The notes under the pieces: generated by a model | Databases searched by the model: none | Seen by the model: only the letters and a program-made list of their open reading frames with translations | What the model was told of the DNA's origin: nothing | Assembly: GCF_015291625.1 (NCBI RefSeq) | Contig: NZ_CP030047.1 | Location: forward strand, 7,378,001-7,442,000 | Length of the DNA stretch: 64,000 nt | Source of the DNA: Bradyrhizobium sp. CCBAU 53421 | GTDB lineage: Bacteria; Pseudomonadota; Alphaproteobacteria; Rhizobiales; Xanthobacteraceae | Direction: 5' to 3' | Made by a program: the position numbers and the translations under genes | In this document: positions 57,593 through 64,000 of the stretch, piece after piece | Numbering within the stretch: the stretch's first letter is position 1 | How the letters are laid out: each line of letters opens with the position of its first letter

Positions 57593-58321
57593 TCATATCC
57601 TGCCCCTCATTTCAGGATGCCCCTTTTTGAAATGAAGGAAGTTACAGACATCATGATATTCTATCTCGTTCAAGCGGAAGCCATACGAGGATATGCGGTT
57701 CACCAGAAAGACCGGATCGAACGCGAATGCCTGAAAACCGTTGGAGCAATCTAATCGAACATAGTCATCCGTGCGCACCACCCCCTGAATGGTAATACCA
57801 CAAAGGTCATAGTATTCGTGGCGAGCCACCGTTGCCGTATCGCTCGTCGAAAAGAGCGACAAAGCTAGATCAAAAGGCGCTTTACAGACCAGCGACAGAA
57901 ATTCCATCGGCGCGTCCATCGTGCCAATAAAATTAAACGGCAGTATGCAAAGCACCTTTCCATCATATCGGCGCATTATCTCTTCGATTAGCCGCATTCT
58001 TTTGAAGAATTTTCTGGCCTCGCAGCGGATAACCGCTCCTCTCCTGCTCTTTAACCGGCGCATACGAGGTGGATTTATTTCGATGCCAAGATAATCATTG
58101 TCATCGTTTTTTATGCCGATAAGGCGGTAGCCGCTACAACCAACTTCTATGATCAACTGGTACTGGGTCGCGCACAGGAGATCGAGGTAAAACAGTCTCT
58201 CGCGATGATGAAACTGACGCACCTCGGCAGTGAAGCAGCTCGGACGCATGAGACGTACGCCTTCATTGCCTAGATAGATCGCTCGATTGACTTGCTGGGA
58301 CCGGAACGCGGAGGAGTTCAC
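57593..58321 (-). CDS. Putative SAM-dependent methyltransferase, last gene of the operon
   Basis: 242 residues. LIIEVGCSGYRLIGIKNDDN then DYLGIEINPPRMRRLK is a class I methyltransferase motif I (E/D-x-GC-G-x) and motif II (GIE). VLCILPFNFIGTMDAPMEFL is in place of motif IV. Later blocks are diverged and I name no subfamily. ATG overlaps the racemase stop (ATGA), so it is part of the same operon. It could methylate the product of the pathway or a carrier intermediate; this is inference. Confidence 0.6.
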   Translation of the reverse strand: MNSSAFRSQQVNRAIYLGNEGVRLMRPSCFTAEVRQFHHRERLFYLDLLCATQYQLIIEVGCSGYRLIGIKNDDNDYLGIEINPPRMRRLKSRRGAVIRCEARKFFKRMRLIEEIMRRYDGKVLCILPFNFIGTMDAPMEFLSLVCKAPFDLALSLFSTSDTATVARHEYYDLCGITIQGVVRTDDYVRLDCSNGFQAFAFDPVFLVNRISSYGFRLNEIEYHDVCNFLHFKKGHPEMRGRI

Positions 58322-59496
58322 TGGTGCCTCATATCATCTCGCGCGGATGAGACGTAAAGCCTGCGGCATCGTCGTCCCATCGCCGTGGTCAATTCGTCGC
58401 TCAGCATTTTCGCGGCCAACGCCATATCCCCGACGGTCTGCTCGGGGCAGATGAGATCCACCACCGTACCGGGCGGCGTCAAACTCTCGGGCAGGTCAGT
58501 TACGTCAATGGTGATAAGGTCCATCGAAACGAAGCCGACGATAGGCGCACGACGACCATATATGAAGACATGCCCTCGATTACCCAGAGTACGCGGAAAT
58601 CCATCAGCATAACCAATCGCGGCGGTCGCGACCCGCATTTGCTTCTTTACTGTGTAGGACCTGAAGTATCCAATCGCTTCCCCATGCTCGAGTTTACGGC
58701 ATTGAATAATTTGCGTTCGCAGATGAACAACTTGCATCGGCTTGAAATCGGGATCATCGGACGCCGAGAAGCCGAAAATTCCTCCACCCGATCTTACGAG
58801 GTCAAAATGAAACTCACGTCCGGCGAACAGTCCGGCCGAATTCGATAGCGAAAGAATCGCATTCGGGAACAAATGGGAAAGTCTGCGAAACCGATTTAGT
58901 TGTTGGAGACAGATCTCGTTTCGCCACTCTGCACAGGCGAGCTGACTCATGAACAGCACGACAGGCAATTCAGACAATCCGTTTCTATTTTCGACGATTG
59001 TGCGTAATTCATCAATGGAAAACCCCAATCGAGAAAGGCCAGTGTCGACATGAATTCCTGCTGGCAGCGCACGATTGCGAAGTCGGCAATGCCGAAGCCA
59101 GGCCTCCAATTGTTCCCTGCTGTTGAGGATCGGCAGCAAATTGCGCTGCTCGGCCGCCAGCTCCATGCCCGGCATAGCGCCGTAGAGCATATAGATCCTC
59201 GCGGATGATGGCAGCACCTCGCGCAAGGCAACGCCCTCCTCCACATCAGCGACGAAAAAATGCACGCAGCCGAGGGAAGCCAGGAAGGGCGCTATACGTG
59301 TCGCGCCAAGACCGTAGGCATCAGCCTTGACGACGGCGCCGCAAGCGCTGCGAGGCGCAAGCGCCTGGCACTTCCGATAGTTGGCTTCAATTGCGCTGAG
59401 ATCAACAATCATGGTCGATCTCGACGTCTCGCGAACGGCATCTACAAGTTTATGATAGGGATGGTCTTCGAGACCAATCGGCACATGTCTTCTCAT
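58318..59496 (-). CDS. Alanine racemase homologue
   Basis: 392 residues from ATG 59496, 19 bases after the flavoprotein gene. Fold-type III PLP enzyme: Lys57 in AVVKADAYGLGA, HVDTGLSRLGF, SLSNSAGLF, VRSGGGIFG, and the second catalytic Tyr296 in AIGYADGFPR. MSQLACAE replaces the usual MTHLACAD, and VGFVSMDL replaces VGRVSMDQ, so substrate preference may differ from Ala. The likely role is to epimerise an amino acid or product of the pathway rather than to serve cell-wall synthesis. The frame extends upstream but is not family-like. Confidence 0.85.
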   Translation of the reverse strand: MRRHVPIGLEDHPYHKLVDAVRETSRSTMIVDLSAIEANYRKCQALAPRSACGAVVKADAYGLGATRIAPFLASLGCVHFFVADVEEGVALREVLPSSARIYMLYGAMPGMELAAEQRNLLPILNSREQLEAWLRHCRLRNRALPAGIHVDTGLSRLGFSIDELRTIVENRNGLSELPVVLFMSQLACAEWRNEICLQQLNRFRRLSHLFPNAILSLSNSAGLFAGREFHFDLVRSGGGIFGFSASDDPDFKPMQVVHLRTQIIQCRKLEHGEAIGYFRSYTVKKQMRVATAAIGYADGFPRTLGNRGHVFIYGRRAPIVGFVSMDLITIDVTDLPESLTPPGTVVDLICPEQTVGDMALAAKMLSDELTTAMGRRCRRLYVSSARDDMRHQ

Positions 59497-59515
59497 CACG
59501 GCACGCCGACGACTA

Positions 59516-60583
59516 TCAATGGTGAGAATACAGCGATCGAATTGCCTCTTCCGCGCACGCGGGCCCAAAACGAAACCCGTTACCTGCACCGCCGCCAATG
59601 ACATACAGTCCGGCGACATCTTGAGCTGGACGAGAGAACGGGACCCCATCGTCAGAATAGCAGTCGCAGAACACACGCGCTGATACCACGGTGGGGATGT
59701 CAGGGGAAAACCATTTTGCGAGGATTGCGGTGGCGCGCGCGAGATCATCCGAACTGACGTGCAGCCCGCCGGGGTCAGCTCTCACATCCCATTCTTGCGA
59801 GGTGAAACTGAACAACCAATACCCCTCCTCAATCATAGGAACCAGGAACGCATAGTCATCGAACAAGCCGACCATTGGACAGTTCGTTGTAGGGCGCGCC
59901 GCCAAGTGAAGCGCGACGATCTTTTTGACTCGCCATCGCGGCCCCTCCGCGAAATGCGCGCGCAAGGGTGACTCTGGCAGCCATGGACCGATTGCCAGAA
60001 CGGCCCGCCTCGCCGAGAGTTCGCTATCATCGGATGTCTGAAGACGAATATGGCTCGGCCTCTGCCGTATCCGTGCAATCGATGTGCGCTCCCGTATCGA
60101 AGTCCCGACGGCCTTGAGCCGTAGGGAAAGGTCCCGAACAATGGAATTGACTGGGCAGTAAGACCCCCGATCCAGTGCCACGACCATATCGCCGGGAACC
60201 ACAAATTGCGGCAGTGATAAAAGTCTCTCCCTGAGCGCGAAAGAAGTCGATGGGGCGGTACCGACCACACAGCTCGTTCGCGTGAGTTCTTCCGGATCAC
60301 GCGTCAACCAAAATACGTCGCAGTCTCGGCCGCCGGGCCATTGCCCATGGGGATAGATCTCTCGCCAAATCCTTGACCCACGATTGAGGAGGCTTCTTTC
60401 CTTTTCATTACGACCGATGTTGATCTGGATTCCGGGGGCAAACCCACTGGCACCTGCCCCCACGGTCTCTCGATCGAAGATGACGATTCTATCCCGCGGC
60501 CGGCTGTTCGCTGCAATGAAGGCGGCACTCAGGCCCATGACGCCGGCGCCAATGACCGCCAAGTCGTAAATGCTGTCGGTCAT
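59516..60583 (-). CDS. FAD-dependent glycine/D-amino acid oxidase-like enzyme
   Basis: 355 residues from ATG 60583, which overlaps the cupin stop (ATGA). LAVIGAGVMGLSAAFIAANS is the FAD fold; ETVGAGASGFAPGIQINIG, RAVLAIGPWLPESPL and the C-terminal GLYVIGGGAGNGFRFGPACA are DAO-superfamily marks. In s56-p1 the homologous Spb39 cuts the hydrazine-linked Lys-Gly intermediate to release hydrazinoacetate. The same role is inferred here from the gene set. Confidence 0.82.
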   Translation of the reverse strand: MTDSIYDLAVIGAGVMGLSAAFIAANSRPRDRIVIFDRETVGAGASGFAPGIQINIGRNEKERSLLNRGSRIWREIYPHGQWPGGRDCDVFWLTRDPEELTRTSCVVGTAPSTSFALRERLLSLPQFVVPGDMVVALDRGSYCPVNSIVRDLSLRLKAVGTSIRERTSIARIRQRPSHIRLQTSDDSELSARRAVLAIGPWLPESPLRAHFAEGPRWRVKKIVALHLAARPTTNCPMVGLFDDYAFLVPMIEEGYWLFSFTSQEWDVRADPGGLHVSSDDLARATAILAKWFSPDIPTVVSARVFCDCYSDDGVPFSRPAQDVAGLYVIGGGAGNGFRFGPACAEEAIRSLYSHH

Positions 60584-60921
60584 CGAGCTCCCTCCCAAGC
60601 GATAGACAAAGCGCACAGAATTTCGCTGCCGCGATTTTCCAAATAATGAGTTCGATGTGGCTGCAGAAACACCAGATCGCCTGCCTTGATGGCCAACTCT
60701 CCATCGTCAGTTATCACCCGACCTTGGCCGCTCGTGATGCGCCAGATCTCGCAGGAAGAATGAGAATGAGGCGTCGACACAGCGAACGGATCCAGCCGAA
60801 ATTCGATGAGCTCGACGGGACAAGGGGTCCCGGACTCGCCGATTTCTTCAACGTGCTGCAAGACTACACCGGGGCTATAGACCGTCCTGTCGCCCAGCGC
60901 CATCAACTGTGCATTCTTCAT
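60580..60921 (-). CDS. Stand-alone cupin, possible half of a hydrazine synthetase
   Basis: 113 residues. Cupin motif 1 is TPHSHSSCEIW with His52, His54 and Glu58; motif 2 has PHRTHYLEN with His92. A single metal-binding domain. In actinobacterial N-N enzymes (Spb40, PyrN) a cupin is fused to a MetRS-like domain; here it is separate but in the same operon. The expected role is rearrangement of an O-glycyl-N-hydroxylysine ester into the N-N bond. Confidence 0.82.
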   Translation of the reverse strand: MKNAQLMALGDRTVYSPGVVLQHVEEIGESGTPCPVELIEFRLDPFAVSTPHSHSSCEIWRITSGQGRVITDDGELAIKAGDLVFLQPHRTHYLENRGSEILCALSIAWEGAR

Positions 60922-60970
60922 TGTATACTCCGAACCACTACCCCGTGTTCGTGGCAGACTTGTTCGCCGG

Positions 60971-62308
60971 TCAGCAGGAGCCCTCGTAGCTAATGCTACT
61001 CCACTCGATGACGCCTGTTCCCGGCCCGCAATCGTAGGCTACGCGGCCGATGATCGAATTGAGGATCAGCGAAGCGCGCCAAGGAACCAGGCTTAGATTT
61101 GTATCAGCGATGCCATGTTGAAGGCGTGCGCCATTCTGGACGTACAAGCGGCACTTTCCGGGACCGTCAAAACGAGCCGAGAACTCTTTGTCGACCACGA
61201 TCTCCTGAGAGCCACCTGGGGCATTCAGGACCTTGAGCCGTCCTGCGATCGGTTCCAGGAACGATGGGATTTCGGTGCGGTAGCCTGTGGCCAAGACGAC
61301 AATGTCTGCGACATGTTGTGAACAAGTTCCTGTCTTCCGCTGACGCAAATCCAAGCGAAAGGGAGACATGCCGCGCAAGTCCTCTGCCGTGGTATCCACG
61401 TATATCTTTACGTGGGCCGGGTAGGACCGTCTATGAACTTCGCGGTCGTACAGCGCATTGTAGATAGCGCGCAGCGTCGAGCAGTTCACGCCATCGCTCG
61501 CCAACGATTGTCGCTCAAGAATTTGCTTCCGGGCGGCTTCACTCTGGTAAAAAAACCAATCACCATGTTGCGGAAAGAACCATTCATTGACGAAAGGACT
61601 GTCTTCGAGCGCGAATATGCTTGCGCGGCGCGTCACCCAGGTCAGGGTTCCCAATGGACCGCATGCACCACCGAGGAGATGAAGGAAGATTTCAGCCCCG
61701 CTTTGGCCGCCACCTACGACCACGACACGCTTGCCGGAAAACTCACGTCGCCGCAGGAGAAGGGTACTCCCGTGAAACACCTCGTTTGGCGGCGCATTCC
61801 TGCCCCACTCAGGAACAGACGGTACCCTGCCCACACCAAGCACAATCGTACCGGTTTGGTAACTGCGGCAATTCGTTGTGATATTGAAGGCTTCACCGCG
61901 CAGTTCGACTGCGCTCACGTGCTCGCCGAATTGAATGTTCGCCAGCTTCGCCGCAGCCCAACGCAAATAGTCCTCAAACTCACTACGAGTAACAGAGGCC
62001 AGTCCCCGAACAATAGCTTGATAAAGTCGCTTCTTATCATGCAAGTAGGCGAGGAAACTGTATGCACTCGTCGGATCGGCCGGTGTGACCAAGTCCTTTA
62101 GCGGGCTGGTTTGCATGACGGCACCTGCCAAAAGCAGACCGGGATGCCACTTTACCTTCTCTAAGCTTTCAAGGACGTTCAACGAAATGTCCAGAATTGG
62201 AGCCGCGAGCGCTGCCAGACTCAGATTAGCCGGCCCCGCACCGATCGCGATGACGTTGTAGCTGTCGGCGTGTTTCAGCATCCCATGATCCCACAAGGAG
62301 CCAGTCAA
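60971..62308 (-). CDS. Lysine/ornithine N-monooxygenase
   Basis: 445 residues. FAD site YNVIAIGAGPANLSLAALA (18-36), NADPH site VVVVGGGQSGAEIFLHLL (about 195-212) and the ATGYRTEIP substrate motif; this is the SidA/IucD/PvdA family. It would make N6-hydroxylysine or N5-hydroxyornithine. No siderophore synthetase is in view, while a MetRS-like protein and cupin are, which favours N-N bond formation over siderophore. ATG overlaps the MFS stop. Confidence 0.9.
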   Translation of the reverse strand: MTGSLWDHGMLKHADSYNVIAIGAGPANLSLAALAAPILDISLNVLESLEKVKWHPGLLLAGAVMQTSPLKDLVTPADPTSAYSFLAYLHDKKRLYQAIVRGLASVTRSEFEDYLRWAAAKLANIQFGEHVSAVELRGEAFNITTNCRSYQTGTIVLGVGRVPSVPEWGRNAPPNEVFHGSTLLLRRREFSGKRVVVVGGGQSGAEIFLHLLGGACGPLGTLTWVTRRASIFALEDSPFVNEWFFPQHGDWFFYQSEAARKQILERQSLASDGVNCSTLRAIYNALYDREVHRRSYPAHVKIYVDTTAEDLRGMSPFRLDLRQRKTGTCSQHVADIVVLATGYRTEIPSFLEPIAGRLKVLNAPGGSQEIVVDKEFSARFDGPGKCRLYVQNGARLQHGIADTNLSLVPWRASLILNSIIGRVAYDCGPGTGVIEWSSISYEGSC

Positions 62309-63519
62309 TGTTCTCGGCTGCCCGAGAACACTTGAGTTACAAGAAGAACTGCATTCCCGACGATAAGTATCATCATGCTTATCAGCAGATTATCGACGCT
62401 GCCGAACTTCACGATTTGCCCTGCGATGTATGGAAATCCGAATAGGCCAATGAAGTAGGAGAGCGTGAAGACTTGAGACGCAATTGCCAACGATGTCCCA
62501 TCCGTTTCAGCAATGTACACGACCATACTGTTCAGGGTCGAATAGCTGAGACCGTATCCCAGCGCGAACATCATCGTTCCGAAGATGTAGTTCGCCGTAC
62601 TGCCTACATTCACGAAAAGAATGAATAGCCCCGCGATAGTGCATATGATGAGAACCGCGGCTACGCGTTCAAGGCGAAATCTTCCAATTACCGGCGCCAC
62701 AGCAAACCGCATGAAGACGGCTGTCAGCGTGAAAACCAGAAAGAATGTGTCGGCAGACTGCGATCGCGATGCAGCGTAGAGCGTTTGGAACGTAAAAAGA
62801 CCGGCGAAAACGCATCCCCCAAGGCCGATCATGATGATCGGATATCGCGTGTTCGATTCGAACGCTTTTAGCACGCCCTCCAGGGTGAGACGTATGGTTG
62901 GCAATTTGGTCTGAGGAGCTTGCGCCAACCCCCTACCGGCGAATTCCAAGAACGTCGCGCCAACGAGACATGCAGCCGCAAATAGGGCGTACACCGCAAT
63001 GTAGGATCCCGCAGTCACCGCGACGGTGTGCGCGAGAGGAGAAGCAAGTCCGATACCCAGCATTTGCGACCCGGATAGCAAGGTAAGATACTTGATGCGG
63101 GCTTCGGCCCGCACGTGGCCAAGGACTTGAAGAGGCGCCAGCATATAGAAGCCGGACCACCCAATGCCGAGAAAAAGTCCTCCGACGTAGGCGAAGAGCG
63201 TTAAAGTTGACGCTAATGCGAAACACATCATCGCGCCCGCCATCATCACTGCGGCTACGGTGATAGTTCGCATTAAGCCAAGCGAATCCGCGATCCGGCT
63301 GACCATTAGCGAACACAGTATCGTTGCGATCGTACCGGTCGAGATAACGGCTCCGGCGGTCGTGGCGCTTTGTTGAATGGACCGCAGAGCGTCCACGAGA
63401 AAGAAGCTCGAACCATAGGACGCCGCCAAGCTGATACTACCAAGCATAAAAGGAATGGACACTTCTAACGGGATCGCACTGGGCAGTTTCTCGGCAGGAA
63501 CGATGTTCGCGACTGTCAT
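62305..63519 (-). CDS. MFS transporter
   Basis: 404 residues with about 12 membrane helices, start ATG 63519 overlapping the stop of the MetRS-like gene (ATGA). Typical MFS loops: VSRIADSLGLMRTI and GRFRLERVA. Likely exports the operon product or gives self-protection. No family-specific substrate motif is visible. Confidence 0.85.
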   Translation of the reverse strand: MTVANIVPAEKLPSAIPLEVSIPFMLGSISLAASYGSSFFLVDALRSIQQSATTAGAVISTGTIATILCSLMVSRIADSLGLMRTITVAAVMMAGAMMCFALASTLTLFAYVGGLFLGIGWSGFYMLAPLQVLGHVRAEARIKYLTLLSGSQMLGIGLASPLAHTVAVTAGSYIAVYALFAAACLVGATFLEFAGRGLAQAPQTKLPTIRLTLEGVLKAFESNTRYPIIMIGLGGCVFAGLFTFQTLYAASRSQSADTFFLVFTLTAVFMRFAVAPVIGRFRLERVAAVLIICTIAGLFILFVNVGSTANYIFGTMMFALGYGLSYSTLNSMVVYIAETDGTSLAIASQVFTLSYFIGLFGFPYIAGQIVKFGSVDNLLISMMILIVGNAVLLVTQVFSGSREH

Positions 63520-64000
63520 GCTGCAATCTTTCCCGGAAGGCATCGTTCAATATCTGAGACCGCCAACCTGCGTCCATCGATCTTCGGTGCCCCTCCATTT
63601 CGGTGAGGTGAAGGCGTCGAAGCGCGTGCGGCAACTGGATGGCCGCTATGACCGAGCCAGCGCCATAAGGCTTCTGTTATCTTGGGCATCAGCGGCCAGG
63701 CCAATATACTGAATCCCATAAGCCAGGCGTAAGCGGTCTTATGGTCCGGCGAACCATCAAGATGATCAACCCATTCGATAAGCGGCCGCGACGATTGCGA
63801 TACCCGCAGACGGTCGAGCGAAAGCGCGGCGCACTGCTTTTCGTAGAGTCGATCCAACGTAACCATCATCGCACTATCAACGTGACATCCAGCGAGAGAA
63901 GGCATCGAGTTTAGGGACTCCGTGCAGCGGTCGATTGCCGCAGATATCTTGTCGAGAACCGCGTTGTAACGATCGACCAAGCGCCCTGGCACCAAGTCGG
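63516..64000 (-). CDS. Methionyl-tRNA-synthetase-like protein (C-terminal part, runs off the edge)
   Basis: 161 codons visible. VPGRLVDRYNAVLDKISAAI and MGFSILAWPLMPKITEALWR, WLGHSG are the helical anticodon-binding-like domain of class I MetRS (compare LLAPFMPxTAEKIWExLG). The end KIDGRRLAVSDIERCLPGKI is not a standard MetRS tail. The catalytic HIGH and KMSKS motifs would lie outside the window. Linked in one operon with an N-hydroxylase and a cupin, it is best read as a hydrazine-synthetase MetRS-like component that activates glycine, not a housekeeping enzyme. Confidence 0.72.
   Translation of the reverse strand, partial: DLVPGRLVDRYNAVLDKISAAIDRCTESLNSMPSLAGCHVDSAMMVTLDRLYEKQCAALSLDRLRVSQSSRPLIEWVDHLDGSPDHKTAYAWLMGFSILAWPLMPKITEALWRWLGHSGHPVAARASTPSPHRNGGAPKIDGRRLAVSDIERCLPGKIAA

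What the first reader, a model, noticed from the sequence alone, without database searches (positions are those of the whole stretch)
57593..64000. Hydrazine (N-N bond) type biosynthetic operon with the cupin and MetRS-like parts on separate genes
Seen: a minus-strand operon with ATGA overlaps at four junctions coding for a MetRS-like protein, MFS exporter, lysine/ornithine N-hydroxylase, cupin, glycine/D-amino-acid oxidase-like flavoprotein, alanine racemase homologue and putative methyltransferase. Known: Spb38/Spb39/Spb40 (s56-p1) and the matching pyrazofurin enzymes join N6-hydroxylysine with glycine through a cupin-MetRS fusion and release hydrazinoacetate by an FAD oxidase. Inferred: the same chemistry here, in a symbiont, with a split enzyme and extra racemase and methyl transfer steps. 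The product could act on the host or on competitors.
Basis: partly seen in the sequence, partly recalled or inferred. Interest (0 to 1): 0.95.

Follow-up and report, generated by a model that had tools for sequence, protein, structure and literature searches.

The report
Nodulation-island hydrazine–azetidine operon
At least fifteen of 265 Bradyrhizobium genomes searched, all of them carrying nodulation genes, hold near those genes a tightly packed set of seven genes that is predicted to make and export a small molecule with a nitrogen–nitrogen bond, likely built on a four-membered-ring amino acid, which might act on the host plant or on rival bacteria.

The parts
63516..64000 (-). MetRS-like amino-acid adenylating protein, last 160 codons; the gene continues past the window to 65174 (552 aa), the head of the operon; a perfect sigma-54 consensus lies further upstream at 65466-65482
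62305..63519 (-). MFS transporter, presumed exporter (start at the ATG of the ATGA overlap; longest ORF to 63543)
60971..62308 (-). Lysine/ornithine N-hydroxylase-like flavoprotein; PF13434, 1.2e-94; LKDL and DSPFVNE as in PvdA, unlike the diamine hydroxylases
60580..60921 (-). Standalone cupin, predicted N-N-forming; presumed metal ligands H52, H54, E58, H92; best PDB match RHS1 (5uqp)
59516..60583 (-). FAD (DAO-family) oxidase, predicted to cleave a C-N bond and release the hydrazine; 30% identical over 360 columns to the oxidase of the S. meliloti SM11 hydrazine-type cluster
58318..59496 (-). Alanine-racemase-like PLP enzyme, second copy in the genome; role unknown (racemase or resistant spare copy)
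57593..58321 (-).

Best explanation
This is a conserved seven-gene set in the nodulation-gene region of Bradyrhizobium that is predicted to build and export a hydrazine (N-N bonded) amino acid, likely with azetidine-2-carboxylate (AZE) as one half. Shown by sequence: the parts, their order, their conservation, the nodC linkage and the sigma-54 consensus upstream. Inferred mechanism: the hydroxylase makes N6-hydroxylysine (or a near relative). The AzeJ-like enzyme cyclises SAM to AZE. The MetRS-like protein adenylates the amino acid (likely AZE) and esterifies it to the N-hydroxyl group. The zinc cupin rearranges that ester to an N-N bond. The FAD oxidase cleaves the lysine side and frees the hydrazine, and the MFS protein exports it. 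The racemase may act on an intermediate, or serve as a spare alanine racemase if the product attacks PLP enzymes. Sigma-54 control, probably by NifA, would place expression in low-oxygen nodules.
Against: No substrate, product or expression datum for this operon. The AzeJ-like protein has PFNxxGT (21 of 21 rows) where AzeJ has PFNxxGN, IY for FY, Ala for Ser203 and GxxxY for GxxxG, so SAM cyclisation is not assured. The nearest Paraburkholderia relatives (L019, L020, L022) have no AzeJ, DAO or racemase hit near the MetRS-like gene, but a PhzF-like domain. The amino-acid partners named in the papers I saw are primary amines; AZE is a secondary amine. The hydroxylase matches in the two Streptomyces loci are weak (31.9 and 33.8 bits). 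Nine fetched loci with a MetRS-like match gave no cupin hit and L007 only a weak one. The HxHxxxE cupin motif is common to many cupins. The upstream half-site is ACC, not NifA's ACA; one genome (G195) lacks the promoter and one (G099) has a mismatch and no half-site pair. In the own genome nifH lies about 0.67 Mb away. The R7A msi280 insertion mutant is marked '+' in the strain table, apparently for effective symbiosis, so such genes may not matter for nitrogen fixation itself.
Confidence: 0.5

Rival explanations
1. A hydrazine operon in which the MetRS-like protein loads an ordinary amino acid (Gly, Ala, Ser or Glu), and the AzeJ-like enzyme modifies the freed hydrazine, for example by transferring the aminocarboxypropyl group of SAM or by methylation.
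For: Core hydrazine-synthetase parts. The AzeJ-like protein deviates at the carboxylate-binding residues N139 and S203. Partners named in PMC8664883 and PMC11705231 are ordinary primary amino acids.
Against: AzeJ-like and MetRS-like genes stand together in three phyla, and the Streptomyces AzeJ versions keep all three published motifs. No methyltransferase profile matches the window protein.
Confidence: 0.3
2. One reading: the product is hydrazinoacetate from N6-hydroxylysine and glycine, as for Spb38/39/40.
For: Same enzyme classes; FAD oxidase homologous to those of hydrazinoacetate-type clusters.
Against: The MetRS-like protein sits in a clade with the AzeJ-bearing loci, apart from the S. 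meliloti and R. rhizogenes enzymes. It would leave the AzeJ-like gene and the racemase unexplained.
Confidence: 0.12
3. The MetRS-like protein makes an ester or amide (peptide ligase) and the cupin does something else, so that no N-N bond forms.
For: Cupin motifs are generic; without the cupin the PyrN MetRS-like domain gives an amide (PMC8664883, section 8); PMC2922099 (2010) proposed a peptide ligase.
Against: The best PDB match of the cupin is RHS1; the pattern with the essential Glu is kept in 84 of 84 loci with a hit.
Confidence: 0.06
4. A hydroxamate siderophore operon.
For: The N-hydroxylase family is mostly known from siderophores.
Against: No IucA/IucC synthetase in the genome; hydrazine-type partners in the operon; sigma-54/nod context.
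Confidence: 0.02

Closest known systems
PyrN / Spb40 cupin-MetRS hydrazine synthetases (pyrazofurin, s56-p1)
   Same: MetRS-like adenylating part, zinc cupin with H-x-H-xxx-E and a late His, N-hydroxylase and (s56-p1) FAD oxidase
   Different: Two separate proteins here; partner amino acid unknown; AzeJ-like and racemase genes added
RHS1 and its MetRS-like partner, Rhodococcus jostii RHA1
   Same: Naturally split cupin and MetRS-like protein with a lysine N-hydroxylase nearby; strain DK176 carries the cupin accession WP_007299751 that the paper names RHS1, in the same gene set; RHS1 is the best PDB match of our cupin
   Different: RHA1 uses glutamate and has a saccharopine-dehydrogenase-like gene; very distant MetRS-like branch
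MetRS-paralogue/cupin/lysine N6-monooxygenase systems predicted in PMC2922099 (2010)
   Same: Same core, fused or standalone cupin, already listed in Sinorhizobium meliloti, Mesorhizobium loti, Frankia and Legionella
   Different: Predicted there to be peptide ligases; Bradyrhizobium is not in the passages and section part read, and AzeJ was unknown then
Mesorhizobium R7A: enzyme Q8KGM6 and lysine-monooxygenase gene msi280
   Same: Rhizobial hydrazine synthetase (Table 2 of PMC11705231) and a NifA2-dependent lysine-monooxygenase gene (PMC3538637); that the two belong to one cluster is inferred from L134, where such genes lie beside fdxB and acdS
   Different: L134 enzyme is fused, with a PhyH-like gene, and is on another MetRS-like branch; Q8KGM6 itself was not compared
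AzeJ and VioH, azetidine-2-carboxylate synthases
   Different: N139 is Thr, S203 is Ala, GxxxG is GxxxY, FY is IY; sits in a hydrazine operon, not with an NRPS
Split hydroxylase/PhyH/cupin/MetRS-like cluster of Rhizobium bean symbiotic plasmids (L112)
   Same: Split hydrazine-type genes, there between nodA and nodD2
   Different: Different MetRS-like branch; phytanoyl-CoA dioxygenase-like gene; no FAD oxidase, racemase or AzeJ-like gene in the stretch

Membership tests
Cupin/MetRS-like hydrazine synthetases | MetRS-like adenylating fold close to PyrN, with HxGH and KFSxS motifs | tested here: met
Cupin/MetRS-like hydrazine synthetases | Cupin with zinc ligands and the essential Glu (RHS1 E69, PyrN E56) | tested here: met
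   H52, H54, E58, H92; E in 84 of 84 other loci with a cupin hit; best PDB match 5uqp, E 9e-7
Cupin/MetRS-like hydrazine synthetases | Co-located lysine/ornithine N-hydroxylase | tested here: met
Cupin/MetRS-like hydrazine synthetases | ATP-dependent N-N bond formation | not testable with these tools
   needs enzyme assay
Housekeeping methionyl-tRNA synthetase | Groups with metG | tested here: not met
   Own metG (L115) and P0107 form the other side of a branch (SH-aLRT 97); quick tree with long branches
AZE synthases (AzeJ/VioH) | Fold and profile match | tested here: met
   the model is only pLDDT 75, with residues 63-94 poor
AZE synthases (AzeJ/VioH) | Motif RxxYYxxC | tested here: met
   R167, Y170, Y171, C174 in 21 of 21 rows
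AZE synthases (AzeJ/VioH) | Motif PFNxxGN | tested here: not met
   PFNxxGT in 21 of 21 rows; so it is called AzeJ-like, not filed as an AZE synthase
AZE synthases (AzeJ/VioH) | Motif FY (gating Tyr18) | tested here: inconclusive
   IY, with the Tyr kept (Y16), in the four window-type rows
Hydrazinoacetate (Spb38/39/40) pathway | Glycine as amino-acid substrate | not testable with these tools
   specificity residues not available here
NifA-sigma-54 regulon | -24/-12 promoter | tested here: met
   Perfect consensus in 14 of 16 carriers, 1 mismatch in G099, none in G195
NifA-sigma-54 regulon | Upstream NifA site TGT-N10-ACA | tested here: inconclusive
   TGT-N10-ACC in 14 of 16, 73-75 bases before the promoter
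NIS hydroxamate siderophore system | IucA/IucC synthetase | tested here: not met
   0 matches in the genome

The most novel reading that the evidence does not exclude
The operon makes an N-amino-azetidine-2-carboxylate: the cupin forms an N-N bond on a ring nitrogen, a chemistry I have not seen reported for hydrazine synthetases. The exported product would be a vitamin-B6/PLP-enzyme antagonist like 1-amino-D-proline of linatine, made in nodules under NifA/sigma-54, acting on host ethylene or amino-acid enzymes in the manner of rhizobitoxine or aminooxyacetate (analogies recalled), with the extra alanine racemase as self-protection.
Probability: 0.13. Interest if true: 0.93.

Novelty: new variant of a known kind. 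Interest (0 to 1): 0.7.

Why it matters
If right, reactive hydrazine chemistry is an accessory symbiosis trait linked to nod genes and co-regulated with nitrogen fixation. Versions on different MetRS-like branches lie in nod or nif regions of Bradyrhizobium, Rhizobium and Mesorhizobium, and others in nodC-positive Paraburkholderia genomes. It also joins two odd enzyme families (hydrazine synthetase and AzeJ-like SAM enzymes) in one gene set seen in three phyla, which predicts a new N–N heterocycle and makes the substrate question directly testable in E. coli.

Tried and rejected
Rejected: novelty of the split (published standalone pairs); plain methyltransferase; NIS siderophore; housekeeping MetRS. 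Left open: lysine against ornithine as hydroxylase substrate. The protein keeps LKDL and DSPFVNE where PvdA has its substrate-binding Lys and Asn (residue roles recalled) and diamine hydroxylases have MSDL/IADL, which argues for an amino acid, not a diamine. The hydroxylase tree did not discriminate. The order-level scan for the AzeJ-like protein found only the own genome among 397 drawn evenly.

Papers: ten searches; among the titles and abstract beginnings listed I saw none that ties Bradyrhizobium to hydrazine synthesis, or AZE to cupin hydrazine synthetases. Lists were cut at 20 (48, 31, 83 and 33 papers found). The library holds no subscription papers; Matsuda 2024 (named in PMC11705231) was not read. 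Read: PMC8664883 abstract and sections 7, 8, 10–13, 24; PMC11794875 abstract, sections 7, 9, 10 and passages; PMC2922099 passages and the first part of section 7; PMC3538637 passages; PMC11705231, PMC10445470, PMC13061610 passages; PMC13274452 abstract. All others: search listing only.

Rows left out: before the MetRS tree 32 loci named in the script (repeats of the same gene, other synthetases, near-identical, truncated or non-hydrazine loci) and any row scoring under 60 or shorter than 380 aa; metG (58.2) was put back by name. Of fetched loci with a MetRS-like match, L012, L021, L032, L043, L064, L065, L068, L077 and L085 gave no cupin hit and L007 one of 4e-8, below the cut used for the 84.
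Full report
Where it is. The window is G000:C1:7378001-7442000 of a one-contig 9.26 Mb genome; the nearest relatives of its proteins are Bradyrhizobium. The window also carries cbb3 oxidase subunit I, CcoG/FixG, a copper-type P-ATPase, a FixL-like kinase (below its cut-off) and noeE, and a groES/groEL pair, so it is symbiosis DNA. Fetching the DNA beyond the edge completes the MetRS-like gene: 552 aa, 63516–65174.

The observation. Seven minus-strand genes lie close together: MetRS-like, MFS, N-hydroxylase, cupin, DAO-type FAD oxidase, alanine-racemase-like, and a last gene without Pfam or NCBIfam match. Overlaps of four bases are possible at four junctions, two of them ATGA. The racemase ORF is over-long; an internal ATG at 59496 fits better. 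All seven genes in this order were seen in 15 of the 16 Bradyrhizobium genomes that carry the MetRS-like gene, own included. In the 16th (G132) the MetRS-like gene lies at a contig end and carries a stop near its end, while the last gene is on another contig. The seven genes show purifying selection, dN/dS 0.13–0.32 in pairs with L010, L011 and L018.

Why AZE may be the partner. A profile search of the fetched loci finds AzeJ-like genes only in the Bradyrhizobium operon loci and in L023, L024 (Streptomyces) and L025 (Corallococcus sicarius). There the order is MetRS-like, cupin, FAD oxidase, AzeJ-like, then a PF13434 hydroxylase-like gene (33.8, 31.9 and 56.1 bits against a cut-off of 21.3), and in L023 also MFS and GNAT genes. 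The Streptomyces AzeJ proteins keep all three published motifs; that of Corallococcus has PFNxxGG. In the tree these three and the Bradyrhizobium/Paraburkholderia rows form one 25-row clade (99%), 17 rows with AzeJ; of the 8 without, four are single proteins whose neighbourhood I could not read. In Bradyrhizobium the full-length AzeJ-like gene occurs in exactly the 16 of 265 genomes that have the MetRS-like gene; three more genomes (G006, G087, G162) hold only C-terminal remnants of 47–58 positions. No second ligase lies among the seven genes. Against: AZE is a secondary amine, unlike the partners named in the papers I saw, and three Paraburkholderia relatives (49% identical) show a PhzF-like domain and no AzeJ, oxidase or racemase hit.

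Symbiosis link. nodC over cut-off: 135 of 265 genomes, all 16 carriers among them (hypergeometric 1.3e-5, not corrected for kinship). nifH over cut-off: 158 of 265; 15 carriers are listed as over it, and the 16th (G123) has E 1e-136 with its place not listed. Operon and nodC share a contig in 16 of 16, 35.8–93.8 kb apart. The Paraburkholderia carriers L019, L020 and L022 are nodC-positive too (4 of 14 genomes tested there were over cut-off, the fourth being P. tuberum). Upstream of the MetRS-like gene a perfect sigma-54 consensus is kept in 14 of 16 carriers (own: 65466–65482, minus strand), with one mismatch in G099 and none in G195. Such perfect sites number 13 in 554,604 positions of 15 loci scanned, of which 12 should be the operon's own, and none in 128,000 positions of the window. 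A TGT-N10-ACC block stands 73–75 bases before it in 14 of 16; the neighbouring groES gene has a near-consensus promoter with TGT-N10-ACA. Precedent: PMC3538637 (passages) lists msi280, an L-lysine 6-monooxygenase gene of M. loti R7A, with a NifA/RpoN promoter; its lacZ fusion gave 372 Miller units in wild type and 7 in the nifA2 deletion, while its insertion mutant is marked '+', apparently for effective symbiosis. NifA control here is likely but untested.

Mechanism, with status. N-hydroxylation, adenylation, ester, N–N rearrangement, oxidative release and export: inferred from family and residues. AZE as partner: inferred from co-occurrence. The racemase is a second copy beside another one in the genome; PLP racemases should not take a secondary amine (general knowledge), so it more likely acts on another intermediate or protects the cell. 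Biological role (PLP-enzyme antagonist in the nodule, like rhizobitoxine, or weapon against rivals): speculation from analogy, recalled.

Verdict. A real, conserved, nod-linked variant of a known enzyme kind, with a partner family that I did not find reported in ten searches of open papers. Interest 0.7: the novelty lies in the AzeJ-like pairing and the symbiotic setting, not in the split enzyme.

Noticed in passing
L112:5908-9997; L135:6449-10590; L131:8853-10590: Bean-nodulating Rhizobium sp. N871 carries an independent hydroxylase, PhyH-like, standalone cupin and MetRS-like cluster between nodA and nodD2; CB3090 has a like set. In R. etli CFN42 p42d only the MetRS-like gene and the second half of the cupin were found. 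36 plasmid records match the MetRS-like gene at 95% identity or more, one of them over a third of its length.
   Followed up: partly
L134:5466-15408: In Mesorhizobium sp. 131-3-5 a 666-aa MetRS-like protein with a cupin match near its N-terminal end, with hydroxylase and PhyH-like genes, sits about 2 kb from nif ferredoxin fdxB and 4 kb from an ACC deaminase gene.
   Followed up: partly
L133:1-15080: Sinorhizobium meliloti accessory plasmid pSmeSM11b has a hydrazine-type cluster with NRPS, C45 peptidase, GNAT and acyl carrier protein, resembling azaserine/triacsin clusters.
   Followed up: no
L019, L020, L022: nodC-positive Paraburkholderia have MetRS-like, MFS, hydroxylase and cupin, with a PhzF-like domain in the same open frame before the cupin (Pfam run on L020 and L022).
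   Followed up: partly
G006:C301:6771-6911, G087:C48:45777-45917, G162:C1:2462397-2462570: C-terminal remnants of the AzeJ-like gene in three other nodC-positive Bradyrhizobium, which suggests loss of the operon.
   Followed up: no
window 53643 (+): Near-consensus sigma-54 site (1 mismatch) with TGT-N10-ACA 119 bases before it, just upstream of groES/groEL.
   Followed up: no
L048, L051-L057, L067: Nine Legionella/Fluoribacter loci carry MetRS-like, hydroxylase and cupin genes together; described only.
   Followed up: no
L071, L073: Protofrankia coriariae and a nodule Frankia carry a MetRS-like/hydroxylase/cupin set of another clade.
   Followed up: no
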